Of a stretch of DNA of 64,000 nucleotides, positions 8,220 to 22,786 are shown in pieces. A model generated the notes under the pieces. It did not search any database. It worked only from the letters and a program-made list of their open reading frames with translations, and was not told the DNA's origin. Source of the DNA: Bacteroidales bacterium (GTDB lineage Bacteria > Bacteroidota > Bacteroidia > Bacteroidales > UBA932); contig JAQXHU010000124.1 of NCBI GenBank assembly GCA_029007435.1, forward strand, positions 1 through 64,000. Reading direction: 5' to 3'. Within the stretch, counting starts at the first letter, position 1, and each line of letters opens with the position of its first letter. A program made the position numbers and the translations under genes.

Positions 8220-9644
8220 ATGGAACCGAAACTGATTGGAAGACAATACGAATGGGAGTTGCTTGATGAAGTGATGAAGTCAGGTGAATCCGAATTGGTC
8301 ATTGTGTATGGAAGAAGGCGTGTCGGAAAAACATTCCTGGTCAACAAGTTCTTCGACAACACGTATGCGTTCAAACATACCGGAGTATTCAACAAAAGTA
8401 CAGGAACACAGTTGGAACGCTTTGCAGCCTCTCTCGAAGACTACTCCGGAGAAGCCGTCTCCGTTCCCGGGAACTGGTTCAAGGCATTCGATTTGCTGAA
8501 AACCTATCTACGCACCGTCAAATCAGAAAAGAAAGTTGTTTTCATAGACGAGATTCCGTGGCTGGACACTGCGGACTCCGACTTCGTTTCGGCGCTGGAG
8601 TCGTTCTGGAACGGATGGGCTTCCGCCGAGGACAACATTGTCCTTGTGGCTTGCGGTAGCGCGACTTCGTGGATGACCGACAAACTCCTTGGAGACAAGG
8701 GCGGTTTGTTCAACAGGTCTGCGACACGTATGTTCCTCAGGCCGTTCACATTGAAAGAGACTGAGGAGTATCTCAAGATCCGCGGATTCGAACTTACCAG
8801 ATATGATATCGCGGAGTGCTATATGATTATGGGCGGCATTCCGTTTTACCTGAAGCAGATGAATCCCAGATGGACACTTGCAAAGAATATTGACATGATG
8901 TTCTTCAAGGAGAAAGGATTGCTTTGGGACGAGTTCGACCATCTTTACAACACCCTTTTCAGGAATGCAGACACATATATTGCAGTAGTTGAAGCGCTTG
9001 CCGGAAAACGAATGGGAATGACCAGGAAAGAGATCGTGAAGGAAATAGGAATAAACGATAACGGTGACTTCGGGAAGGTACTTAAGAACCTGGTTGACAA
9101 CGAATTCATACGCCCGTACAACTATTTCGGAAACAAGAAGCGCGATACCATCTATCAACTGGCAGATTTCTACACTATGTTCTACTTCTCTTACATAAAG
9201 GACAATTACGGACGTGACGAGAATTTCTGGACCAACAGCGTCGATCTGCCCCTGCGCAGGGGTTGGGCAGGATATACATTTGAGCAGCTCTGCCTGCATC
9301 ATCTGGAGCAGATCCGCAAGAGCATCGGAATCTACGCCGTTCAATGCGAAACCTCAGCATGGTTCAGTAAAGGAGAGGAAGGAAAGCGCGGCGCCCAGAT
9401 AGACCTTCTGATAGACAGAAGAGACCGCGTCATCAACATATGTGAGATGAAATACTCCATCAACGAGTTCACCATCGACAGCGAATATGACAAAAGTCTT
9501 CGCAACAAGATACAGGTCTTCAGGGATGAGACAAAGACACGGAAGGCGCTACATCTGACGATGATAACGACATACGGTGTAAAGAGAAATATGTACAGCA
9601 ACAGCGTCCAGTCTCAAGTAGTGCTTGACGACTTATTCGCTTAG
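8220..9644 (+). CDS. ATP-binding protein of the ATPase_2 / DUF234 type
   Basis: 474 aa; Walker A VYGRRRVGKTFL, Walker B-like KVVFIDEIPWLD, C-terminal QIDLLIDRRDRVINICEMKYS nuclease-like DUF234 segment. Confidence 0.82.
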   Translation: MEPKLIGRQYEWELLDEVMKSGESELVIVYGRRRVGKTFLVNKFFDNTYAFKHTGVFNKSTGTQLERFAASLEDYSGEAVSVPGNWFKAFDLLKTYLRTVKSEKKVVFIDEIPWLDTADSDFVSALESFWNGWASAEDNIVLVACGSATSWMTDKLLGDKGGLFNRSATRMFLRPFTLKETEEYLKIRGFELTRYDIAECYMIMGGIPFYLKQMNPRWTLAKNIDMMFFKEKGLLWDEFDHLYNTLFRNADTYIAVVEALAGKRMGMTRKEIVKEIGINDNGDFGKVLKNLVDNEFIRPYNYFGNKKRDTIYQLADFYTMFYFSYIKDNYGRDENFWTNSVDLPLRRGWAGYTFEQLCLHHLEQIRKSIGIYAVQCETSAWFSKGEEGKRGAQIDLLIDRRDRVINICEMKYSINEFTIDSEYDKSLRNKIQVFRDETKTRKALHLTMITTYGVKRNMYSNSVQSQVVLDDLFA

Positions 9645-9658
9645 TCGAAATTGATCTC

Positions 9659-9684
9659 TCCAATTCCCCCCCCCAGAAAATTTG
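9659..9684. repeat. Direct repeat copy 2 (TCCAATT-C9-AGAAAATTTG) right of the ATPase gene
   Basis: Same element as 8063-8084 with nine Cs instead of four. Confidence 0.7.
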
Positions 9685-9704
9685 TTTGTTTTCCAGATAA
9701 TATA

Positions 9705-9729
9705 TATCTTTGCGTATCATAATTGATAC
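9705..9729 (+). promoter_or_regulatory. hipBA promoter -7 box (TATCTTTG) plus inverted repeat GTATCA-N4-TGATAC
   Basis: TATCTTTG 9705-9712; perfect arms at 9714-9719 and 9724-9729; upstream TTTG motifs at about the expected -33 spacing. Confidence 0.65.
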
Positions 9730-9736
9730 CTTATTT

Positions 9737-10072
9737 ATGAATATACTTAATGAACAGACAATCTACCAGGTCACTGATGAGCAAATACTCGGCGAGCTTC
9801 ACGACAGGCTGGTCAGGATGCGCCGTTCTTGCTGTTTCTCCCAGCAAGAGTTGTCTGACCTCTCAGGTGTCTCCATTGCAACTATCAAACGGATAGAGAC
9901 ACAGAGGGATAAGGACATCAGTCTCTCGACACTGATACGACTTCTGCGGACAATGACGCAGATGGAAGGCATCGGAGGCCTCATCCCTGAGGTGCCTGAC
10001 TCCCCTTTCCTTTCCCAGAAAAACGGCAAGACAGCCCAACGTGTTTCGCGTAAAAGAAAGAGGGTATCATGA
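9737..10072 (+). CDS. hipB: HipB-like XRE-family antitoxin/transcriptional regulator
   Basis: FSQQELSDLSGVSIATIKRIETQRDKDISLSTLIRLLR helix-turn-helix; overlaps hipA start; start placed downstream of the promoter. Confidence 0.82.
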   Translation: MNILNEQTIYQVTDEQILGELHDRLVRMRRSCCFSQQELSDLSGVSIATIKRIETQRDKDISLSTLIRLLRTMTQMEGIGGLIPEVPDSPFLSQKNGKTAQRVSRKRKRVS

Positions 10073-11310
10073 AAGGGGTAATGAACATCAATGTAGTGTT
10101 GTGGGGAGAGGTGATCGGAAGGATGACTTGGGATAATGCCCGTCAGGTGGCAACATTCCAGTTTTCAGAGCGTTACCATGAGATGCCATACAATATAATG
10201 CCGACAAGGCCAGCTAAACCAATACCAGCATTTCTTGGCACTATTGGGGACAAATATCACGGTCTGCCGCCATTCATTGCCGATTCGTTGCCTGACCATT
10301 GGGGAAGCATCATATTTGACAAATGGGCCATGGAGAAAGGAATTCAGCCAAAGGACTGCAATCCTCTCCTGAAATTGGCCTACATTGGCAAGAGGGGTCT
10401 CGGCGCCCTGGAGTTCGTCCCTGAAATAGATACTGCGGATTCCGAAACCGGAGACCTTGCCGGTCTTGAAGCAATGGCCCAGGAAATCTACAGGAAGCGT
10501 TCAGAAGTCGTTATTAAGGATGATGATATAAACACATTCGAATCATTCGCCCGACTCGGTTCTCCTCCAGGAGGTGCACACTCAAAGATACTCATCGCAA
10601 TCAACAACAAGGACAATTCTATCATTTCCGGGCAGACGGACCCTAAAGATGGATTCACCCAGTACATCCTCAAGTTCAAGGAGGATTATGATGTCCCGTC
10701 CTGTGAGATTGAATATGTCTATTATTTGATGGCGAAAGAGGCGGGAATAGATATTATGCCATCCAGATTGATTGAAATCAACGGCAGGAAACATTTCCTC
10801 ACGCAGAGATTTGACAGGCGCGATGGAAGGAAACTGCTCACGCAGACAATGGCGGCACTCATTCCGAGTGCAAGCGACTACCAGAACCTTTTCTTCCTTT
10901 GCAGGACTCTTGGATTGGCGGAATCAGCCAGAGTTGAACTGTTTCGCAGAATGTGCTTCAATGTAGTCGCAGGAAATACCGATGACCACAACAAGAACTT
11001 CTCGTTCATCATGCACGAAGATGGACATTGGGAACTGGCACCGGCCTATGACATCACTTTTACGGCTGACATCTGGAAGAGGTCGGATGATGACATTCAT
11101 TCGCTTGGGATATATACCAAGCGATGCTATTTTACAGAACAAGACCTCATATCTTTCGGTGAAGATTTCGAAATTCCGGAGCCAAGGAAAATTCTTGATG
11201 AAGTCAAAAATGCTGTTTCAAAATTTAGCCGTGTAGCCTATGAGAATGGGATATCGCAGAATTGGATTGATAACATTTCAAAGGTACTACTGACTCTGCT
11301 TCAGCGATAA
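10069..11310 (+). CDS. hipA: HipA-family serine/threonine kinase toxin
   Basis: 413 aa; PDHWGSIIFDKW, GSPPGGAHSKILI, NVVAGNTDDHNKNFSFI and APAYDIT motifs; looks full length. Confidence 0.88.
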   Translation: MKGVMNINVVLWGEVIGRMTWDNARQVATFQFSERYHEMPYNIMPTRPAKPIPAFLGTIGDKYHGLPPFIADSLPDHWGSIIFDKWAMEKGIQPKDCNPLLKLAYIGKRGLGALEFVPEIDTADSETGDLAGLEAMAQEIYRKRSEVVIKDDDINTFESFARLGSPPGGAHSKILIAINNKDNSIISGQTDPKDGFTQYILKFKEDYDVPSCEIEYVYYLMAKEAGIDIMPSRLIEINGRKHFLTQRFDRRDGRKLLTQTMAALIPSASDYQNLFFLCRTLGLAESARVELFRRMCFNVVAGNTDDHNKNFSFIMHEDGHWELAPAYDITFTADIWKRSDDDIHSLGIYTKRCYFTEQDLISFGEDFEIPEPRKILDEVKNAVSKFSRVAYENGISQNWIDNISKVLLTLLQR

Positions 11311-11699: not shown

Positions 11700-12020
11700 G
11701 CTTAGCTAGCCCAGATTCCAAATCGTTGGTCTATCGTTAATTTCGGCACTTTGGTTTGGAAGAAGGGTTGGGCGGGCAGACATACTGAAGACGTTACTTG
11801 ACGTTTATCTTCCGCATCAAACTTCGCAACTTTGATTTAATCGTAAGGAAGTAACGGCAACGGGAGCGTCCACTTGTGATGACGTTTGAATCGCCATGCC
11901 ATTGGGCGTGGGGTTTATTCATATCATCCTTGACGTGGGCTAGCTGCGTTGCTTATCCTTTACGATGGCAGCGAAGGCCTGATGCGGGATGAGCAAGAGT
12001 AAGACTCCCACGTCTTTTTT
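11700..12020 (+). ncRNA. Candidate structured leader RNA / small RNA with intrinsic terminator
   Basis: -7-like box TATTTTTG at 11687-11694; several nested complementary helices; terminator GACGTGGG (11932-11939) / CCCACGTC (12007-12014) followed by T6. Confidence 0.6.
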
Positions 12021-12066
12021 AGTATCCGTTCGGATCAGGGTGTCGCCGGACCTTTATTTTGTACCA

Positions 12067-13395
12067 ATGAGGTTTTTCTCCTTGACGAAGTCACTAATTC
12101 TTCTTTCAGTCGCATCAATGCTCTTAGCAGGATGCTTTGGAGGTAAAGGTGGCAATCGTGGTTCAAGTAATACCACAGTGAATGTACCTGAGAATTTTTC
12201 TGAACCGGAAAGAGATCACTCAGGGGTTTCGGATACGCAGGATACTCAAACAATTATTGACGGGCATCCCGTTATCAATGTTTACCTTGAGAATTCTGGC
12301 AGCATGAACGGTTACGTCGACAAAGGAAAAACCGAGTTCCAGCAGGCTGTATTCAATTACCTTACAGATGTCAATATTTCCGGCATTCCTTCTGCGCTTA
12401 ACCTGAATTACATTAACAGTCAGATAATCCCTAAAGGATCGGTTATAGATGATTTTATAAATAAACTGTCGCCAAGCAGTTTCAGCAGCACTGTTGGAAA
12501 TAAAGCGACAACTGACATCTCCGATATCTTAAAAACAATTCTTTCCAAAACCGACCCGAATACCGTGTCGATCTTTATCTCAGACTGCATTTTCTCCCCA
12601 GGGAGAAACAATAATCCAAAGCCTTATCTCGTAAACCAGCAGGTAGGCATCAAACAGTCGGTCGCTGATTATATCGCAGAGTATGGCAGCCTTGGAATGA
12701 CTGTTTATCAAATCTATTCCCAGTTCAACGGCCGTTATTTCGATTACAACAACACACCAAGGACATATCAGGGAATGAGGCCGTTCTACATTTGGATAAT
12801 TGGAAGTCCAGAGCATATCCTCAAGATCAGATATGCCGTACCTAAAGAGAAGTTCCAGGGTGAGGTGGCTCATGAATGGAGCATTTACAATACTCCTATT
12901 GATGTGAAATACAGCATACTTCCAAATCCTAGAAAAGGCTCTTTCAATAAAGATGGGGCATATGGAATGAGCCGGATTCAGAAAGATCGAAACGGAGATT
13001 TTATGTTTACTATCGGAGCTGATTTAAGAGTTCTTCAAGTCATGCTCGGAGACGAATATCTTATGGATACTGACAATTATGCAAGACTTGTCAACAAGGA
13101 GGTCTCACGTGATTACTATATCAATGTTAAGCATAATCAAGCGCAGAACTCCCCAGCTACTCACAATATCGAAATATCCACGGAGGTTTTGCCTACTAAA
13201 GGACAGTTCATTCTCCAAGTAAGTTGCAATACGCCTAAGTGGGCTCATGAATTAACTGATGAAGATGACCGGTCTTTCGACAGTGAGAATGAAAGGAAGA
13301 CATACGGCCTGGAGTACATATTCAATGGAATCCAGCAGGCGTTTACTGCCCATGATTCAAACCCTTACACAAAAATGATCATTAATATCAAATAA
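12067..13395 (+). CDS. vWA-like lipoprotein (operon gene 1)
   Basis: MRFFSLTKSLILLSVASMLLAGC lipobox; MIDAS-like VYLENSGSMNGYVDKG and TVSIFISDCIFSPG. Confidence 0.7.
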   Translation: MRFFSLTKSLILLSVASMLLAGCFGGKGGNRGSSNTTVNVPENFSEPERDHSGVSDTQDTQTIIDGHPVINVYLENSGSMNGYVDKGKTEFQQAVFNYLTDVNISGIPSALNLNYINSQIIPKGSVIDDFINKLSPSSFSSTVGNKATTDISDILKTILSKTDPNTVSIFISDCIFSPGRNNNPKPYLVNQQVGIKQSVADYIAEYGSLGMTVYQIYSQFNGRYFDYNNTPRTYQGMRPFYIWIIGSPEHILKIRYAVPKEKFQGEVAHEWSIYNTPIDVKYSILPNPRKGSFNKDGAYGMSRIQKDRNGDFMFTIGADLRVLQVMLGDEYLMDTDNYARLVNKEVSRDYYINVKHNQAQNSPATHNIEISTEVLPTKGQFILQVSCNTPKWAHELTDEDDRSFDSENERKTYGLEYIFNGIQQAFTAHDSNPYTKMIINIK

Positions 13396-13397
13396 AT

Positions 13398-13880
13398 ATG
13401 AACCTGTTCGAACTTCCTTATGCAGTCAAGGATTTCTACGGACCATCCTTGTACGAGCACCTGAAGGGATGGGACGATAGTTTAATGGATTACAATCCGG
13501 ATTTCTATCAGTTCACATCTATCTTCTTCTCAACCATTGGGATTGCTATTATTGCTTTTTTGTTGTTTTACTATATAATAAACTCTCCGCGTTTCAATCG
13601 TTGGTGGAGTTGGCTGATTGTGCTTCTGGCATCTATGGTATTTGCTTATGGGTTTGGCTTTCAGGTAATAAATGTGGATATTGTCCACAATGATATCGCA
13701 CCGAGTCTTGTATCTCAAATAGGCCGTAGCAATGCAATCCTCTTCGGATTATATAACAGCCTATTCTGTGGTTTGGTCTTTTTCCTCCTTTCTGAGGCAT
13801 TCAGGTGGTGGAGCCGCAACTGCAAGCACTCTCCTTGGACATTGCTTCCTACAAAATTAAATAACGGGCGCCATGAGTAA
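13398..13880 (+). CDS. Small multi-pass membrane protein (operon gene 2)
   Basis: 160 aa with about three hydrophobic helices; 2 nt after gene 1 and overlapping gene 3. Confidence 0.7.
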   Translation: MNLFELPYAVKDFYGPSLYEHLKGWDDSLMDYNPDFYQFTSIFFSTIGIAIIAFLLFYYIINSPRFNRWWSWLIVLLASMVFAYGFGFQVINVDIVHNDIAPSLVSQIGRSNAILFGLYNSLFCGLVFFLLSEAFRWWSRNCKHSPWTLLPTKLNNGRHE

Positions 13881-15312
13881 ACTTTACGTATTTGGTATTG
13901 GAGGAACTGGTTCCAGAGTCCTCAGAGCACTTACAATGCTCCTTGCAAGTGGCGTTAAATGTAACGCCGAGAAGATAGTGCCTATTATTATTGACCCTGA
14001 TGATTCTGCTGCTGATATGACCAGGACCGTATCGACAATGAATCATTATATGAGCATATTCAATAAGATTGAGAGGAATGACGATAACAAGAACAAGTTC
14101 TTCAGCACAGAAATACGCCCTGTGCCAGGAATGAGCAATTTCAAATTCGCGATTAAGAATACAAGAGACTGCAAGTTCAAAGATTTCATTAAAACTAACG
14201 CCTTGAACAAAGAAAACGAGGCTCTTGTACGAATGTTGTTCTCCGAAAACAATCTTGAATCTGACATGGTCGTGGGATTCAAAGGCAATCCCAATATCGG
14301 AAGCGTCGTTCTTAATCAGTTTGCAGATTCTCAAGAGTACAAGGATTTTGCGACAGATTTTCAGCAGGGTGACAAAATATTTATCATAAGTTCAATTTTT
14401 GGCGGCACTGGCGCCAGTGGTTTCCCTCTTCTTCTCAAGACGCTTAGAAATGACAAGACCTCTGCGAGCTGGAGCCTGATCAGCAAAGCAAATATTGGAG
14501 CAGTGACTGTTCTTCCTTATTTTAAGCTGAAGCAGGATGACAACAGCGCGGTCGATTCATCTACGTTCAACTCAAAAACCAAGTCCGCCTTGGCATACTA
14601 TGAAAGGAATATCAGCGATAACGGCAATATTGATGCATTATTCTATATCGGAGATAACCGTTTTGCCACTTATGAGAATCATGACGGGGGTTCGGTGCAG
14701 AAGAACAACGCTCATTTTATTGAGCTCGTCTCAGCTTTGGCGATACTGAAGTTCGCCGCACCTGAAGACAGTGTGCATGAGATGGGAACTCAGCATTATG
14801 AGTATGGTCTTGATGTCGATATGCAAAAGGAGGAGAATCAGAATTTCGGACAGGTGATTTTCAAGAATCTTGGCAAGGAGACGAAGGCTCTTATTCAGAG
14901 ACCTCTGACACAGTTTATTCTATCATGCAAGTATATGACACATTGCAGGGAGAAAGAGTTCAAACATCAGCCGTGGGCCATTGACAATAAACTTGACGCA
15001 TCCTTCTTCTCCGGTGATTTTATCAAGGACTTAGCTGAATTCTGTGATTATTATGTCGAGTGGCTAAGGGAGATGGGTAACAATGCCCGTTCATTCAAGC
15101 CATTTAACGAGGACAAGATCAAGCCTTTATTTGACATTGTAAATGGAGAGGACGCACGCAAATGGCTTCCAAAACTTCACAGAAACTATGCTCTGTTTGA
15201 CAGCACACTAAATGGAACACATTGCAACAAGGCAGCAAGCAGAGAACAAAAGATGATGGAGCTATTGTTCAGAGCTTCATTAGACCTTGTTAAACACAAA
15301 TACAATATGTAA
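13873..15312 (+). CDS. Tubulin/FtsZ-like GTPase family protein (operon gene 3)
   Basis: N-terminal LYVFGIGGTGSRVLRAL nucleotide loop; IFIISSIFGGTGASGFPLLLKTLR resembling the tubulin signature G-box, as in Tubulin_2-like proteins. Confidence 0.75.
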   Translation: MSKLYVFGIGGTGSRVLRALTMLLASGVKCNAEKIVPIIIDPDDSAADMTRTVSTMNHYMSIFNKIERNDDNKNKFFSTEIRPVPGMSNFKFAIKNTRDCKFKDFIKTNALNKENEALVRMLFSENNLESDMVVGFKGNPNIGSVVLNQFADSQEYKDFATDFQQGDKIFIISSIFGGTGASGFPLLLKTLRNDKTSASWSLISKANIGAVTVLPYFKLKQDDNSAVDSSTFNSKTKSALAYYERNISDNGNIDALFYIGDNRFATYENHDGGSVQKNNAHFIELVSALAILKFAAPEDSVHEMGTQHYEYGLDVDMQKEENQNFGQVIFKNLGKETKALIQRPLTQFILSCKYMTHCREKEFKHQPWAIDNKLDASFFSGDFIKDLAEFCDYYVEWLREMGNNARSFKPFNEDKIKPLFDIVNGEDARKWLPKLHRNYALFDSTLNGTHCNKAASREQKMMELLFRASLDLVKHKYNM

Positions 15313-15315
15313 GGT

Positions 15316-18300
15316 ATGGCAAAAGTATTGAGATTGCATAATCAGTCAAATGACAACATCACCGATTGGGGTAAATGCGCCAAGTATGGCTCTAATGTCA
15401 TTAATCAGATAGAAGATCCCGCTGGGGCTACAGCAAAGAAGGAAATCACATCCATTCCTTCCCCTTTTGCGCGTATCGATCTGGCAAAGACCGCGTTCAG
15501 GATTGTTGCCAATTCAAATAACCTTGATGGAAACACAATTCATCATAAACTGGTTTCAGACTGTCTTGATATCGGGGAAATCTTGTTTAATTATGACAAA
15601 CTCGCCGATCAACTTGATATTATCGTATGGGACAGGGAAACTGAAATCAACAGGCTCAAAAGCAGTAGAGAAGATGGGCATCGAATCCTTGGTCAGACTC
15701 TTGACATGTACCTTAATCAAGATGCAAAGGCATATAATTTCGACAAACTTGACAAGATATTTCTTTTGAACTATAAGGGTAAAGGCCGCCCAGATCCTTC
15801 AATGAATATAATCGGTGCAACATCACCATGCACTCTATTCTTCAGCTCGGCCAATGACCTTCAATATGCGTCAGAGTATCTTCGCTCGAGTGGAAAAGAC
15901 AAGCCGTTCGATAGCGAATACTCGCCTCTTTATCAAAGAGACTTCCAGTTCCAGAAATATATATACTCTCTTAGAGAAGCTTATGGGCAATCTCAGTTTG
16001 CAAAAGATTTCCCGGAGTTTGATCTATATATTGAAGAGAGCAGCCGATGGCTTACAGATGAGCAAAAAGACGAGATTGACAAGTTGAACAATCAAAGTAT
16101 CAATGCCTACCCTCCGCTTGAAGTTGGAGGCAATACAGTCAGTGTTTGTGGAATGAAGTTCAGAAAGAGCATTGGAACAACCGCTTCTATCATTCGCAGT
16201 GACTTTACCGTCAAGAGTTCCATTGAACACGATAAGATGCCTCTTGTCATCCCTGTTGAGACTGGTAACAGCTATACTGATCTCACTTATATTCAGGATA
16301 AATGGCAGGATACAAATCACGCTCCGTACGAAGAGAGAAAGTCTATTTCAGAAAGGACGCTTCCTCACTCAGCGGACAAATATCCATATCTCACTATCAG
16401 TGATTTCCTGCAGCCAACAGTTCTTTCGATGCCTTATCCACTCAGCAAAGATTATTTCAATGGCAATATCAGTGGAAATTTGAATGACAGTTGTTTCTTG
16501 TTACCATTGACAGATACATTTTTTGAGTATTTTACCGTTGAAGATCTCCAGACACAAATGCCTGATGGAAAAGATATGATTGAAATGAAGGCTCTTGCCG
16601 GTGGCAGTCTTTCAGTGACATTGAGAATTCCTATTCAGAAAGGAAGATACGTTCAGTACTATAGGGAGTATTATAATAGCAACAAACCGGACATTGAGCA
16701 GAACAAGGGTTCCGTGAAGGAGATAAGCTTTGGCCTTGGCGTATTCCCTCTGGTCAAGTTTAATGAGGGAACGGATCCTTATTATAGAATTGCGTTCCTG
16801 AGTAAGCAACGAGGCAGCAGCCTTTCTTTCGCAAAGAGTAATACCGCTGTTGAGTGCATCAAGACAACCAGACGGCAGCCTGGCGACAACTGTGGTGTTG
16901 AATCCTATGTCGTAGAGAACCGGTTCTCTCACATCTATGTATTAGCGAATGGAGTTAAAAATGTCATTATACCTCTATTCAAGCAACTAAACAACTCAAA
17001 GGTATTTACATTTGCTGTTGATTTCGGAACAACAAATACTCACGTGGAGTATTCAATTGACGGTTCATCAACATCTTTCCCGCTGGATATAAAGAGCACT
17101 GAAGTTCAGATGGTCAGGATGCATTCACGATACTCTGACCTTGATATAAATGGCGCCTTTGCAGATGCATTTGTGCCAGAAACCATCAATGATGGAGACG
17201 AGTACGCATTCCCTATGCGCACAGCATTTGCCGAGTATGTAAATATTGATTATAATAGGAATACAAACAGTCTTGCCGACGGTAACATACCATTCCGCTA
17301 TGAGAAGGTGGATACACCTAACTATCATGATGTAAAGACAGACATCAAGTGGTCTAATCGCGAGTCAGCCAGGGTAAAACTGTATCTCGACAACCTTTTT
17401 CTCATTATGAGAAACAAGGTTCTCATCAACGGTGGCCGTCTATCTGAGACAAAGGTGGTATGGTTCTATCCTGTCAGCATGACGAGAGCACGTAGAAATG
17501 AGTTTGACAACGTATGGCAGTCACTTTACAAGAAGTATTTTGGCGAGGATGTTGAAAATAACCTTCTCACAATGTCAGAATCTGTTGCTCCTTATGACTA
17601 TTATAAGAGGAAGAAGGGAGCTAAATCCAATGTAGTGACAGTTGATATCGGAGGTGGCACAACAGATATCTATGTAGTTGAAGACAGCAAGCCTAAGTTC
17701 TTGTCATCATTCAGATTTGCCGCAAACTCTATCTTTGGTGACGGCTATAACTTCCCGAGCGAGAACAACGGATTCGTTGTCAGGTATAAGGACAAGATAA
17801 TGAGCATTCTTGAAAGCAACAGCGGCCAGAAGGGAATCAACGATTTGATTAGTGCTTATGAGGACATTGAGCATCGTGAGAATTCAAATGACGTAATTGC
17901 TTACTTCTTCTCCCTGGCTTCTCATAAAGCCATCGTTGAGAAACGGATTCCTCTTAACTTTCAGGAGATGCTTGCTAAAGATGAGAAACTCAAGTATGTC
18001 TTCATCGTATTTTATGGTGCAATCATCTACTATGTAGCCAAAATGATGAAAAATGAAGGATTGAGCCTGCCCCAGACAATTGCATTCAGCGGTAACGGGT
18101 CCAAAACATTGAAGGTGCTTTCTACCGACAAGGAAACGGTTGCAAAGTTTGCATCGCTCATTTTCGAGAAAGTATTTGGTCAGAAATATTCCGAAACCAA
18201 TCTTGAGGTAATATTTGACAGCGAGCCTAAACTTGCTACCTGCAAAGGCGGTATTGTAAATAAAGACAAACAGACATTTGATCAGATTCAGGAACTCAGG

Positions 18301-18657
18301 AAGTCTCTCCTTGGTACTGATGACAGCACATTGTCTGAAGGTCTTACTTACGCTCAAATAGATGAAAGCATCAAGAAGAATGTCGCCAATCAGGTAAGAG
18401 AGTGCATCGACTTCATCTTCAGTATAAATTCCGAGAACAAGAACTTTTTCATCAATGATCTTGCAGCAGATTCCGGCAGTCTTGAGACTGTAAAGAGAAT
18501 CTGTAAGACTGACCTTATGGAATATACAAAGCAGGGATTTGACAACAAGATGGAAGAGCTCAGGTCCTGGGGCCTTGGTGCAGATGCTGAGATTGAGGAA
18601 ACGCTGTTCTTTTATCCGCTTGTCGCTATTTTAAGTAAACTTGCAAGGGAGGTTTAG
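15316..18657 (+). CDS. Large protein with C-terminal actin/Hsp70-like ATPase domain (operon gene 4)
   Basis: 1113 aa; FAVDFGTTNTHVEYSIDG (phosphate-1), VVTVDIGGGTTDIYVVED (phosphate-2), IAFSGNGSKTL (adenosine motif); about 570-aa N-terminal region unassigned. Confidence 0.82.
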   Translation: MAKVLRLHNQSNDNITDWGKCAKYGSNVINQIEDPAGATAKKEITSIPSPFARIDLAKTAFRIVANSNNLDGNTIHHKLVSDCLDIGEILFNYDKLADQLDIIVWDRETEINRLKSSREDGHRILGQTLDMYLNQDAKAYNFDKLDKIFLLNYKGKGRPDPSMNIIGATSPCTLFFSSANDLQYASEYLRSSGKDKPFDSEYSPLYQRDFQFQKYIYSLREAYGQSQFAKDFPEFDLYIEESSRWLTDEQKDEIDKLNNQSINAYPPLEVGGNTVSVCGMKFRKSIGTTASIIRSDFTVKSSIEHDKMPLVIPVETGNSYTDLTYIQDKWQDTNHAPYEERKSISERTLPHSADKYPYLTISDFLQPTVLSMPYPLSKDYFNGNISGNLNDSCFLLPLTDTFFEYFTVEDLQTQMPDGKDMIEMKALAGGSLSVTLRIPIQKGRYVQYYREYYNSNKPDIEQNKGSVKEISFGLGVFPLVKFNEGTDPYYRIAFLSKQRGSSLSFAKSNTAVECIKTTRRQPGDNCGVESYVVENRFSHIYVLANGVKNVIIPLFKQLNNSKVFTFAVDFGTTNTHVEYSIDGSSTSFPLDIKSTEVQMVRMHSRYSDLDINGAFADAFVPETINDGDEYAFPMRTAFAEYVNIDYNRNTNSLADGNIPFRYEKVDTPNYHDVKTDIKWSNRESARVKLYLDNLFLIMRNKVLINGGRLSETKVVWFYPVSMTRARRNEFDNVWQSLYKKYFGEDVENNLLTMSESVAPYDYYKRKKGAKSNVVTVDIGGGTTDIYVVEDSKPKFLSSFRFAANSIFGDGYNFPSENNGFVVRYKDKIMSILESNSGQKGINDLISAYEDIEHRENSNDVIAYFFSLASHKAIVEKRIPLNFQEMLAKDEKLKYVFIVFYGAIIYYVAKMMKNEGLSLPQTIAFSGNGSKTLKVLSTDKETVAKFASLIFEKVFGQKYSETNLEVIFDSEPKLATCKGGIVNKDKQTFDQIQELRKSLLGTDDSTLSEGLTYAQIDESIKKNVANQVRECIDFIFSINSENKNFFINDLAADSGSLETVKRICKTDLMEYTKQGFDNKMEELRSWGLGADAEIEETLFFYPLVAILSKLAREV

Positions 18658-18659
18658 TT

Positions 18660-19301
18660 ATGGAACAACTTACATTATTATCCCCATTCATAGCAGTAGC
18701 AGCAACGATTATCGCTATACTTGCCAGTGTTATATTTTTTGTTAAATGCAGTTGTCTCAGTGACAAGATTGATGAATTAAACGAGCGTATCGATAAGCGC
18801 AAGGCTGATGCTAATCTTATGGATTTAAGATTCAGGCGTGAAATTGAAGCCCTTAAAACTCAGTTACACTCATTGTCGCCTCAAGATAATCAAGCACATA
18901 GAGCATCGGAAGAAAAGAATGCCGATTCGAATGAAGCAGCATATGCAACTGTTAAATCAGAATTTCTGCCTGTAACAGATAAAACAAAGGATGCAGAGCA
19001 TACTCTATATGCTTCCTCATACGACAGCGAAAGGAACCAGTTCTTCGCTATAGAGTCATCTCCCTCGCAGAAAACAATTTATGAAATAACCTATTTCGAA
19101 AGTAATCCTCAAACTGGATATTTTACAATTTATAAAGAAGCTGAACATAAAGTGGTTGAATGCAGAGACCACCTTGATGCAGCTTCAGAAATCGAAGGCA
19201 GAGGTAAAAAAATTGATTGGAGCACTCTCAATCCGGGAAAACTTTCAAAGAAGGAGAATAATTGGGAAGTCGTGACACCCCTCACTGTAAAGTTTGTTTA
19301 A
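18660..19301 (+). CDS. Single-TM coiled-coil protein with C-terminal small domain (operon gene 5)
   Basis: 213 aa; N-terminal TM, charged coiled-coil, C-terminal YEITYFESNPQTGYFTIYKEAEHKVV...NNWEVVTPLTVKF. Confidence 0.65.
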   Translation: MEQLTLLSPFIAVAATIIAILASVIFFVKCSCLSDKIDELNERIDKRKADANLMDLRFRREIEALKTQLHSLSPQDNQAHRASEEKNADSNEAAYATVKSEFLPVTDKTKDAEHTLYASSYDSERNQFFAIESSPSQKTIYEITYFESNPQTGYFTIYKEAEHKVVECRDHLDAASEIEGRGKKIDWSTLNPGKLSKKENNWEVVTPLTVKFV

Positions 19302-19304
19302 GAC

Positions 19305-20819
19305 ATGTCGAATATTTTAATATCACTCATCATTCTTGGCTTTGCCGTATGTTTTCAATGGGCTTCTTTTGTTAAAACGCAGAAAACTCGAAAGAAACTG
19401 AAAAACATTTTTCCGAAATCATTCGCAAACTCCGTAGCTGCAGAACGAGATGAAGAGGAAAATACTGTTTGCATAAAGCTCCTTAAAAGCGGCTCGGAGA
19501 GCAAAATATTCGTTAAGATTGTTGAGTCCATCAATTATTATCTCCGCAAGAACAAAGGTGCAACCGATTATGCTATCCTGAAGGATATTACAGATCGCAA
19601 TTGCGATAGCCTGGAAGATGAGATTGATTCAACCGCCAGTGTACCGATTTACATTGGTCTATGTGGTACTGTTCTTGGCATAGTTTTCGGCGTTGCTATT
19701 CTCGCATTCGGCGGTGGTCTTGATCAGCTGCTTTCCAAGGAAGCCATAAACGGTGCGCAAGGAATCAAGGAACTTATGCAGGGTGTTGCTGTCGCAATGC
19801 TCACAACATTTTTTGGCGTTATCTTTACCATATTTGGGTCTCTGTCTCATAAAGAATCACAGAAAATCAATGAACAGCGTAAAAATGAGTTCTTAAGTTG
19901 GATGCAGGGAGAGTTGCTTCCTCAGATGAACACCAATATGGTCAGCACTCTGGATATGCTCCAGAGAAATCTTAACCAGTTCAATAAAGATTTCTCAGAT
20001 AACTCAAAAAATCTTAAGGATATCTTTGGTAATATCAACACTACGTATGACAACCAGGCGGAGATCCTTCGGCTGATAAAGAAACTCGATATAAATGGGA
20101 TGGCTGACGCAAACGTCAGAGTTCTCAGGGAACTTCAGGGATGCACAAGCCAAATTTCACTTCTCCAGTCTTTTCTCAATCAGTCGAACCAGTATTTAAG
20201 TGAAGTCCAAAAGATGAATCAGGAGCTGACTGACTATCAGGACAGGACTAAGCTTATTGAAAATATGGGCGAATTCTTCCAAAGCGAGATTGAGCAGATT
20301 GGTTTGCGAAAAGCTGCTATTAGTAAAGCAGTTGCTGATATTGATGCTGCCGTCGGAAAGTCATTCGAAGACCTCAAGACACATACTGTCGATGAATACG
20401 GCCAACTCAAAAGCTATACAGCTCAGGAGCATGCTGCCTTTCTTAAGGCAATAGAAGATCAGCAGGCTGCTCTTAACACACGACTTGCCGAAACAACCCA
20501 GATACTCGACGAATTGAAAAATCTTGTTGCAGTCAAGGAACAACTGGAGAAGATGACGTCAGCATATACATCTCAAACTGAAAAACTGGATACTCTCGCT
20601 GCAATTATGAAGCGTGTTGCAGATAAGGAGCCTAAGGTAATTGTGCAGGAAGGCGGTTCATCAAACGGAAGCATGCAGGCTATAATTTCTAAACCTGAGT
20701 TCCCTAAGGCAATGAAATGGAAGATGCCTTGGTGGGCGGTTGCGATTATGGGAATAACCAGTGCGAGCGTCGTTTCATGCTGTGTTTTATATGCTCTCCA
20801 CTTATTTGAGTTTATCTGA
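19305..20819 (+). CDS. MotA/TolQ/ExbB (ZorA-like) stator protein (operon gene 6)
   Basis: VPIYIGLCGTVLGIVFGVAILAFGGG...GIKELMQGVAVAMLTTFFGVIFTIFGSL; long coiled-coil; extra C-terminal TM WWAVAIMGITSASVVSCCVLYALHLF. Confidence 0.83.
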   Translation: MSNILISLIILGFAVCFQWASFVKTQKTRKKLKNIFPKSFANSVAAERDEEENTVCIKLLKSGSESKIFVKIVESINYYLRKNKGATDYAILKDITDRNCDSLEDEIDSTASVPIYIGLCGTVLGIVFGVAILAFGGGLDQLLSKEAINGAQGIKELMQGVAVAMLTTFFGVIFTIFGSLSHKESQKINEQRKNEFLSWMQGELLPQMNTNMVSTLDMLQRNLNQFNKDFSDNSKNLKDIFGNINTTYDNQAEILRLIKKLDINGMADANVRVLRELQGCTSQISLLQSFLNQSNQYLSEVQKMNQELTDYQDRTKLIENMGEFFQSEIEQIGLRKAAISKAVADIDAAVGKSFEDLKTHTVDEYGQLKSYTAQEHAAFLKAIEDQQAALNTRLAETTQILDELKNLVAVKEQLEKMTSAYTSQTEKLDTLAAIMKRVADKEPKVIVQEGGSSNGSMQAIISKPEFPKAMKWKMPWWAVAIMGITSASVVSCCVLYALHLFEFI

Positions 20820-20820
20820 T

Positions 20821-21450
20821 ATGTCTCGCAAAAAAAGAGAAGAATCATTCTGGACTGGTTATTCTGACCTCATGACGAATCTATTTTTCGTCATGTTAAT
20901 GCTCTTTGTACTGGCAATTGCATTGCTCCATAAACGAGTAGTGGCTACTCAGGAACAATTGGACAGGATAGAAGAGTTAAACCAATCTATTGAGAAGATT
21001 GACCAAAAATATTTTGAGTATGACTCTCTATATAAAAGACATACACTAAAAGATATTCAAGTTTCTTTCAGGACAAACAGTTCAGACATAAATGACATCG
21101 ATCAGAGCCAGCTTGATAAGTTGGATAGTGCTGGTAGAGCAATTGTCACTTTTATGCAAAACGCAAAATCCTCGATTCCCGATGCGCAATACCTGCTTAT
21201 TATTGAGGGGCAGTCATCAAAGGATGGTTATGTAAGAAACTATGAGCTGAGTTACGAACGAGCTTTGGCGCTGATAACCTATTGGAAAGGTAATGGCATT
21301 GAATTTGATTCATTAGGTAATTGCGAGGTATTGATTGCAGGCAGTGGGCAGTCAAGTCGTTTTCGTTTAGAGCCGGACAATGGCGGTAATAAGAAGAACC
21401 AGCGTTTTGTCATACACATTATTCCTAAACCGGGTACTTTTGAGAAATAA
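20821..21450 (+). CDS. MotB/OmpA-domain (ZorB-like) stator partner (operon gene 7)
   Basis: FWTGYSDLMTNLFFVMLMLFVLAI with the MotB-type Asp at the TM start; C-terminal OmpA-like YLLIIEGQSSKDGYVRNYELSYERALALITYW...NQRFVIHI. Confidence 0.85.
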   Translation: MSRKKREESFWTGYSDLMTNLFFVMLMLFVLAIALLHKRVVATQEQLDRIEELNQSIEKIDQKYFEYDSLYKRHTLKDIQVSFRTNSSDINDIDQSQLDKLDSAGRAIVTFMQNAKSSIPDAQYLLIIEGQSSKDGYVRNYELSYERALALITYWKGNGIEFDSLGNCEVLIAGSGQSSRFRLEPDNGGNKKNQRFVIHIIPKPGTFEK

Positions 21451-22301
21451 TGCCAAGAAGTTTATCAATTCTTATTCTATCAATCCTTTGTGTATCCTGT
21501 AGTTGTGGAAGCACAAAGCAGAGTCTTCATAGCAGGAGTGACAGGATTGCAGGGTTGGATAACAGCTCTTACCAAACGCATCCATATTCGACGAACAAGC
21601 AAGAATATCAAAAATCCGCTTCTCTTGAGATTCCGATTGACAATAGACCGGTTAGTTCTCAGATTCTTAAAAGAGATGGATATCTCTTATCATATAATTC
21701 TGATACAAGGAATTGCAATTGGGTCGCTTACGAGTTGACACGAGAAGAGGCGAATGGTGAAATCCCTCGCAACAAAAAGTTCTATGAGGACTTTGATGTA
21801 ATAAGCCCGAGAGCAACCAATGAGGATTATAACGGATCTGGATGGTCCCGTGGACATATGGCTCCAGCGGGAGATATGAAGTGGAGCGAAAATGCAATGT
21901 ACCAAAGTTGTTTGCTTACTAACATCTGTCCTCAAGATGCTTCTTTGAATAGCGGCGCATGGGAGAGCATAGAGAAAAAGTGCAGATCGTTAGCTAAGCA
22001 AATGGGAAGAGTGTACATAGTATGCGGACCACTGTATAGTGGACCTGTAAGAACAATTGGCCACAATAATGTCAGAGTCCCTGACTCATTCTTCAAAGTT
22101 ATATTGGTTCCGGAAGGACAGTCATATTCATGCGTAGGATTCATCTTGCCCAATGAGCCTGTTCCTACTGCGCAGAAAGATAAATATGCAGTGAGCGTTG
22201 ACGATGTTGAACAAATTTGCGGAATGGACTTCTTCTCTAAGCTTCCTGATTCAATTGAAAATACTATTGAAGCTATAATACCTTGGTCATTAGTTAATTA
22301 A
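21450..22301 (+). CDS. Secreted lipobox-bearing DNA/RNA non-specific endonuclease, NUC1/EndoG family (operon gene 8)
   Basis: SILCVSC lipobox; GWSRGHMAPAGDMKWS, LLTNICPQDASLN and GAWESIEKKCR match the HNN/beta-beta-alpha-Me nuclease core. Confidence 0.87.
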   Translation: MPRSLSILILSILCVSCSCGSTKQSLHSRSDRIAGLDNSSYQTHPYSTNKQEYQKSASLEIPIDNRPVSSQILKRDGYLLSYNSDTRNCNWVAYELTREEANGEIPRNKKFYEDFDVISPRATNEDYNGSGWSRGHMAPAGDMKWSENAMYQSCLLTNICPQDASLNSGAWESIEKKCRSLAKQMGRVYIVCGPLYSGPVRTIGHNNVRVPDSFFKVILVPEGQSYSCVGFILPNEPVPTAQKDKYAVSVDDVEQICGMDFFSKLPDSIENTIEAIIPWSLVN

Positions 22302-22309
22302 GTAAAATT

Positions 22310-22786
22310 ATGAATCAATTTAGACTTTCCATTTTCGCCGTAATAATGGCATTACTCACAGCATCTTGTGCTTCACAATCTATGCCACAGAAGTTGAATG
22401 ACTTCGTTGATAAGGCTGAGTTGAAGTCTTCTTCATATTCGGAGTCAGATTGGGCAGAATCTGCCGCTGAATATCAGCAGTTGGTTGATGACTACATTAA
22501 TTCCGGGAAAGAATACAATGAAGAAGAGAAAAAGATGGCGGCAAGAGCAATGGGCAGATACCACGCACTGTTAATTAAGAATGGACTCGAAAAAGGTGCA
22601 TCTTTCTTGAAAATATTTGGCAATATGCTACCCGAGTATCTTGATGGATTTTCATCCGGCTTGGATGACAATGCGGATAGTTTAGGCTCTACTCTTGACA
22701 ATCTCTTTGATGAGGAGAAAATAGAGAGGTCGCTTGATGCTCTTGAAAACACACTTGAGAAAATTTTCGGTAACGAAATTGAGTAA
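22310..22786 (+). CDS. Small lipoprotein, unknown function (operon gene 9)
   Basis: 158 aa; MNQFRLSIFAVIMALLTASC lipobox; helical remainder; 8 nt after the nuclease gene. Confidence 0.65.
   Translation: MNQFRLSIFAVIMALLTASCASQSMPQKLNDFVDKAELKSSSYSESDWAESAAEYQQLVDDYINSGKEYNEEEKKMAARAMGRYHALLIKNGLEKGASFLKIFGNMLPEYLDGFSSGLDDNADSLGSTLDNLFDEEKIERSLDALENTLEKIFGNEIE

What the first reader, a model, noticed from the sequence alone, without database searches (positions are those of the whole stretch)
13873..18657. A tubulin-like and an actin/Hsp70-like NTPase encoded side by side
Gene 3 carries tubulin/FtsZ-type loops and gene 4 carries an actin/Hsp70 ATPase core behind a roughly 570-aa N-terminal region I cannot assign. 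They are 3 nt apart. Pairing both cytoskeletal superfamilies in one operon with a motor is very unusual and suggests stoichiometric coupling. The gene 4 N-terminus is a good candidate for a new domain.
Basis: partly seen in the sequence, partly recalled or inferred. Interest (0 to 1): 0.8.

Follow-up and report, generated by a model that had tools for sequence, protein, structure and literature searches.

The report
Obligate tubulin–actin-like pair in envelope operon
Two cell-skeleton-type enzymes, one built like tubulin and one with an actin-like core, are encoded next to each other as an inseparable pair in patchily distributed, often mobile bacterial gene clusters, here joined to a proton-motor-like complex and a secreted nuclease, which suggests an undescribed cell-envelope machine, possibly an antiviral one.

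Summary
Gene 3 (13873-15312, 479 aa) is a tubulin-superfamily protein by profile and predicted fold. Gene 4 (15316-18657, 1113 aa) has an actin/Hsp70-type ATPase core behind a ~560-aa N-terminal region matching no Pfam family and no known fold. The pair is not a one-off. It lies in a conserved four-gene cassette (lipoprotein, 3-TM protein, tubulin-like, actin-like) found in about 50 loci from Bacteroidota, Firmicutes and cyanobacterial plasmids. In 200 genomes of the window's family, all 14 with gene 4 also have gene 3; the other four gene-3 genomes have a gene 4 beside it or a contig end. Gene trees match (r=0.96), and one Firmicutes MAG fuses both into a single 1660-aa protein. The ZorAB-like motor (genes 6-7) and nuclease (gene 8) are exchangeable add-ons. 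Gene 3 barely matches Tubulin_2/FtsZl1 and appears to be a separate tubulin family lacking a conserved T7 loop. Relatives sit next to integrases, a relaxase, a phage terminase, plasmid genes and restriction-type genes. Best reading: a mobile, envelope-spanning, NTP-driven machine, most likely a defence/conflict system; that role is inferred. Novelty: new variant of a known kind (vWA/tubulin/HSP70 conflict systems).

The parts
11989..13395 (+). g1: lipoprotein, vWA-like by motif (ENSGSM; DASGSM in the cyanobacterial relative); invariant lipobox Cys; core gene 1
   Evidence: alignment, invariant C49; lipobox LAGC; no Pfam VWA hit, so vWA is an inference from the motif
13398..13880 (+). g2: small inner-membrane protein, 3 predicted TM helices; core gene 2; overlaps g3 by 8 nt
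13873..15312 (+). g3: tubulin-superfamily GTPase-type protein (T1 GIGGTGSR, T4 SIFGGTGASG conserved; T7 not conserved; C-terminal half helical in the model); core gene 3
15316..18657 (+). g4: ~560-aa N-terminal region of unknown fold (motif TSIPSPFAR, Ig-like beta-sandwich pieces at its C-terminal end) followed by an actin/Hsp70-type ATPase core; core gene 4
18660..19301 (+). g5: bitopic membrane protein with coiled coil; occupies the slot-5 position that in most relatives holds a signal-peptide + single-TM protein
19305..20819 (+). g6: MotA/TolQ/ExbB-type channel subunit with long coiled coil and an extra C-terminal TM; ZorA-like
   Evidence: (PF01618 over cut-off)
20821..21450 (+). g7: MotB/ZorB-type subunit, TM Asp in GYSDLMT kept, OmpA-like domain
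   Evidence: (ZorB 1e-14)
21450..22301 (+). g8: DNA/RNA non-specific endonuclease (SRGH active-site motif) with N-terminal signal, probably a lipoprotein
   Evidence: (PF01223 E 1.5e-52)
22310..22786 (+). g9: small secreted or lipoprotein-type protein (LTASC); homologue found only in L024
13873..18657 (+). the obligate tubulin-like/actin-like pair (fused into one 1660-aa ORF in L053)

Best explanation
The locus is a horizontally moving, modular, envelope-spanning NTPase machine. Its invariant heart is g1 (lipoprotein with a vWA-like motif), g2 (inner-membrane protein), g3 (a divergent tubulin-superfamily GTPase) and g4 (new N-terminal domain plus actin/Hsp70-type ATPase). Shown by sequence: g3 and g4 are inherited as one unit and can be one polypeptide. 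Inferred: they form a fixed-ratio cytoplasmic complex docked to the membrane through g2 and slot-5 proteins, and their nucleotide states report or drive an assembly event triggered by a change in the envelope. In this locus an output module is attached: a proton-motor-like complex (g6/g7) anchored to peptidoglycan, and an exported nuclease (g8). The most likely role is defence or conflict, analogous to Zorya and to the NTP-dependent conflict systems of Kaur et al.: the envelope part senses attack, the g3/g4 pair acts as switch or amplifier, and the exchangeable module acts as effector.
For: Same four-gene order in Bacteroidota, Firmicutes and cyanobacterial plasmids. All 18 g3-positive genomes in a 200-genome family sample have g4 beside g3 or end at a contig edge. 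g3/g4 tree distances correlate at r=0.96 over 47 loci. Fusion protein in L053. Patchy: 14-18 of 200 genomes in the family, 11 of 396 in the phylum. Lower GC than its flanks, 0.40-0.42 against about 0.50. Mobile or defence neighbours: relaxase and integrase (L098), terminase and resolvase (L099); integrase-type ORF beside L033; type I restriction-type genes beside L113 and L044; HipBA-type genes 0.7 kb upstream in the window. g7 resembles ZorB and g6 ZorA; in Zorya such motors with PG-binding domains sense infection and recruit nucleases (PMC11890865).
Against: No experiment. No PADLOC system calls g3 or g4. No enrichment test against random loci was made, so the defence neighbourhood is anecdotal. 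The nuclease carries an export signal, unlike the nucleases reported for Zorya, so a nutrient or DNA-processing role is possible. The restriction-type and integrase-type neighbours in L113, L044 and L033 were named by reading the sequence, not by a family search.
Confidence: 0.45

Rival explanations
1. A membrane-remodelling or vesicle-forming machine, as Makarova and Koonin proposed for FtsZl1 operons: the tubulin-like and actin-like proteins build cytoskeletal structures on the inner membrane and the motor/OmpA protein couples them to the wall.
For: FtsZl1 operons also combine a tubulin-like protein with vWA, OmpA-family and membrane proteins (PMC2875224). Most window genes encode envelope proteins. 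ftsA-ftsZ shows that such a pair can remodel membrane (established knowledge).
Against: g3 is not a close FtsZl1 member (21 columns, probability 7.5). Rare, patchy, mobile distribution does not suit a basic cellular process. No conserved T7 loop.
Confidence: 0.25
2. A transport or secretion apparatus: the TolQR/ExbBD-like motor energises an outer-membrane process, with g3/g4 as cytosolic ATPases and the exported nuclease as cargo or for DNA scavenging.
For: g6 carries the ExbB/TolQ-type channel motif; an exported endonuclease is in the operon in six or more loci.
Against: Core occurs without motor and nuclease in Prevotella, Firmicutes and cyanobacteria; no outer-membrane channel gene was recognised.
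Confidence: 0.15
3. A DNA segregation or plasmid-maintenance device like TubZ or ParM.
For: Cyanobacterial copies are on plasmids; tubulin- and actin-type proteins segregate plasmids (established knowledge).
Against: No DNA-binding adaptor gene in the cassette; lipoprotein and membrane partners; most copies found are not on known plasmids.
Confidence: 0.04
4. The pairing is an accident of gene order in one genome.
For: None found.
Against: Conserved in about 50 loci from at least three phyla, with a fusion.
Confidence: 0.01

Closest known systems
FtsZl1 / Tubulin_2 (PF13809) operons, Makarova and Koonin 2010 (PMC2875224)
   Same: Tubulin-superfamily protein with intact T1/T4 loops, unclear T6-T7 region, mostly helical C-terminus; vWA-type, membrane and OmpA-family neighbours
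   Different: g3 is ~480 aa, not ~1100 with coiled coil; it scores 29 bits against 179-236 for canonical members; the partner is an actin/Hsp70-type protein, which the paper's main text does not mention as a component; no GTPase gene
GTPase-centric conflict systems with tubulin or HSP70 plus vWA, Kaur et al. 2020 (PMC7159879)
   Same: NTP-dependent assemblies combining tubulin, HSP70, vWA and membrane parts with exchangeable effectors
   Different: Tubulin and HSP70 are described there as non-overlapping themes in GAP1-N2 systems; no P-loop GTPase is consistently present here; g4 N-domain and motor not described
Zorya (ZorAB), PMC11890865
   Same: g6/g7: MotA-type subunit with long coiled coil, MotB-type subunit with the TM Asp motif and OmpA-like domain
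   Different: No ZorC, ZorD or ZorE; g6 ends in an extra TM helix; g7 scores far below the NCBIfam ZorB1 cut-off (34 vs 400 bits)
FtsA-FtsZ
   Same: Adjacent actin-like and tubulin-like NTPases, one linked to the membrane
   Different: Different families, accessory distribution, large N-terminal domain on the actin-like partner
SrfB (PF07520)
   Same: Large protein whose family weakly matches the actin-type core of some relatives
   Different: Window protein has no match at E<=1; four relatives match only at E 0.01-0.1

Membership tests
Tubulin/FtsZ superfamily (g3) | T1 and T4 glycine-rich nucleotide loops | tested here: met
   GIGGTGSR and SIFGGTGASG conserved in the aligned relatives
Tubulin/FtsZ superfamily (g3) | Tubulin-type GTPase fold | tested here: met
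   Top 50 PDB fold matches all tubulin superfamily, best E 3e-4, TM modest
Tubulin/FtsZ superfamily (g3) | T7 catalytic loop (NxDxxD/E) and C-terminal beta domain | tested here: not met
   No conserved acidic T7 motif after H7; model is helical after residue 335
FtsZl1 / Tubulin_2 PF13809 (g3) | Score above curated cut-off over the domain | tested here: inconclusive
   29.2 vs 27 bits, but the best stretch spans only residues 151-223
FtsZl1 / Tubulin_2 PF13809 (g3) | Profile similarity to canonical long members with coiled coil | tested here: not met
   hhalign 21 columns, probability 7.5, against a two-sequence profile
Actin/Hsp70/sugar-kinase (ASKHA) superfamily (g4 core) | Phosphate-1, phosphate-2 and adenosine motifs in order | tested here: met
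   MreB/FtsA/actin chains are the best profile hits
Actin/Hsp70/sugar-kinase (ASKHA) superfamily (g4 core) | Core fold and subfamily (actin-like vs Hsp70-like) | not tested
Zorya | ZorA/ZorB motor subunits | tested here: inconclusive
   Homologous but far below the ZorB1 cut-off
Zorya | ZorC/ZorD or ZorE effector genes | tested here: not met
   No PADLOC hit to them in the operon
Kaur GTPase-centric systems | DO-GTPase/GAP1 genes in the operon | tested here: not met
   No P-loop gene recurs in the cassettes; GAP1 itself not searched for by profile
vWA domain (g1) | vWA fold with MIDAS motif | tested here: inconclusive
   DxSxS/ExSxS-like motif in alignment, no Pfam or PDB profile hit
SrfB | PF07520 match | tested here: not met

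The most novel reading that the evidence does not exclude
A so far undescribed class of bacterial immune machine in which a tubulin-family GTPase and an actin-family ATPase work as one unit (sometimes one polypeptide), wired through the envelope to an ion-driven rotary motor and an exported nuclease; g3 founds a new tubulin family and the g4 N-terminus a new domain.
Probability: 0.3. Interest if true: 0.85.

Novelty: new variant of a known kind. Interest (0 to 1): 0.62.

Why it matters
Actin- and tubulin-family proteins are the two known families of cytomotive filament formers (PMC10058229, abstract). An obligate pair of them that can be one polypeptide makes direct coupling between the two families testable. 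It also adds a tubulin branch without a conserved T7 loop and a large orphan domain, and it links the pair to a modular motor/nuclease arrangement that resembles known antiviral systems.

Tried and rejected
Lone-genome coincidence: rejected by conservation. SrfABC identity: rejected, no PF07520 match in the window protein. Plain FtsZl1 membership: rejected by length, score and profile comparison. Phage origin: no hit in the phage collection and no confirmed relative with the single-sequence viral-contig scan; the alignment-based scan found five loci in IMG/VR, two of them clearly beside mobile-element genes. Motor as an essential part: rejected. Fold of the g4 N-region: PDB and BFVD gave only Ig-like sandwich fragments with TM about 0.13. 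vWA by Pfam or PDB profile: nothing. Promoter and terminator scans gave no clear operon boundaries; promoter-like sites were at background. Search for further g3-g4 fusions in Firmicutes found none.

Full report
OBSERVATION. Gene 3 scores just above the cut-off of Pfam Tubulin_2 and below that of Tubulin; 15 of 17 aligned relatives match each of these, and the PDB chains its profile reaches are CetZ, FtsZ and an Asgard tubulin, all weakly. Its predicted structure (pLDDT 82, pTM 0.89) has only tubulin-superfamily proteins among its 50 best PDB fold matches. TM-scores are modest because the C-terminal half is different: it is helical. The T1 and T4 loops are conserved; no acidic T7 motif is. So it is a tubulin-superfamily protein, but not one that should be assumed to form FtsZ-type protofilaments.

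GENE 4. The C-terminal half carries the actin/Hsp70-type nucleotide motifs, conserved across relatives, and its profile reaches MreB, FtsA and actin chains. The N-terminal ~560 residues match no family. They were modelled with fair confidence after residue 47 (pLDDT 81, pTM 0.66), but PDB and viral fold libraries return only Ig-like sandwich fragments. In the phylum sample the complete N-region was always found in an ORF of more than 1100 aa, that is, joined to the core. A new domain is therefore a fair description, with the reservation that no library of cellular AlphaFold models was available.

THE UNIT. Fetching relatives and labelling their genes with profiles shows a conserved cassette g1-g2-g3-g4 in Bacteroidota (Bacteroidales, flavobacteria, Hymenobacter, Pedobacter and others), in Firmicutes MAGs and on cyanobacterial plasmids. 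A few of the roughly 50 loci are near-duplicates of each other. Among 200 genomes of the window's family, g4 was found in 14 and g3 in 18, including all 14 (Fisher p 3e-18). Of the remaining four, two have a divergent g4 next to g3, one has a g4-like ORF with the PTPWAR motif cut by the contig end, and one g3 is itself cut by the contig end. One short g3 without g4 was seen in a Firmicutes genome (L077). Tree distances of g3 and g4 correlate at 0.96 over 47 loci, and on the motor-bearing subset this pair is the best correlated of all gene pairs (0.94). In L053 (Syntrophomonadaceae MAG) both are one continuous 1660-aa ORF joined end to end. This is the strongest support for fixed-ratio coupling, but it is a single case in a MAG, and searches for more fusions found none.

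MODULARITY. The motor pair g6/g7 follows the cassette in 24 loci compared, and an endonuclease in a few. Prevotella, Firmicutes and cyanobacterial copies lack them; some carry zinc-ribbon or TerD-type genes instead. The motor also occurs away from the cassette (L114, L115). The gene after g4 usually encodes a single-pass membrane protein, often with a signal peptide. g7 keeps the SDLMT aspartate motif of MotB/ZorB-type subunits and an OmpA-like domain; its nearest solved relatives are MotB-related proteins including 8vvn and 8qyd.

WHERE IT LIVES. The copies are rare and patchy (7-9% of the family sample, under 3% of the phylum sample), compositionally distinct in the window, and several lie beside mobility genes: relaxase and integrase in L098, terminase and resolvase in L099, cyanobacterial plasmids. 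L033 has an integrase-type ORF next to g1, and L113 and L044 have type I restriction-type genes nearby; these three were named by reading the sequences only. The window has HipBA-type genes just upstream.

PRIOR ART. Makarova and Koonin described FtsZl1 operons with vWA and OmpA proteins. Canonical members found here are long and score 179-236 bits; g3 is a separate kind. Kaur et al. described NTP-dependent conflict systems with tubulin or HSP70 components and vWA domains, presented as non-overlapping themes within one class. Zorya provides the model for an ion motor with a peptidoglycan-binding domain that senses infection and recruits a nuclease. I found no paper describing this pair, but the library holds only open-licence PMC papers and no preprints.

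MECHANISM. Shown: shared inheritance, conserved order, membrane and lipoprotein partners, nucleotide motifs. Inferred: a cytoplasmic g3/g4 complex attached at the inner membrane, switching state with GTP/ATP in response to an envelope signal relayed by g1/g2/slot 5, and passing it to exchangeable outputs, here the motor and the exported nuclease. I put 0.45 on a defence or conflict role and about 0.85 on g3 and g4 acting as a physical unit.

Noticed in passing
L053:2442-7424: One 1660-aa ORF fuses the tubulin-like and the actin-like protein end to end (Syntrophomonadaceae MAG JAISDD010000105.1).
   Followed up: partly
L079, L080, L098, L110: A divergent subtype of the pair is followed by an ~470-880 aa gene and TerD-type genes (one confirmed as PF02342; the others by sequence reading).
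   Followed up: partly
L113:2635-9999: g1-g2-g3 at a contig end beside a recombinase-type ORF and several type I restriction-type ORFs, named by reading the sequence.
   Followed up: no
L114:5541-7647, L115:8174-10261: The g6/g7 motor pair occurs without the tubulin/actin pair, with two other conserved genes and (L115) a trypsin-like-looking ORF.
   Followed up: no
window 8220-11310: AAA ATPase gene, then HTH + HipA pair (HipBA-type) directly upstream of the operon, in a stretch of lowered GC.
   Followed up: partly
L037:18814-22154: Two DnaJ-domain-like ORFs downstream of the cassette in Christiangramia, which may bear on whether the g4 core is Hsp70-like.
   Followed up: no
L025/L026 (G105): One genome carries two diverged copies of the cassette.
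   Followed up: no
L101:4881-8279, L102:5032-8658: Canonical long Tubulin_2 proteins in other Bacteroidota; L102 has a neighbour with a vWA-like NSGWM motif.
   Followed up: partly
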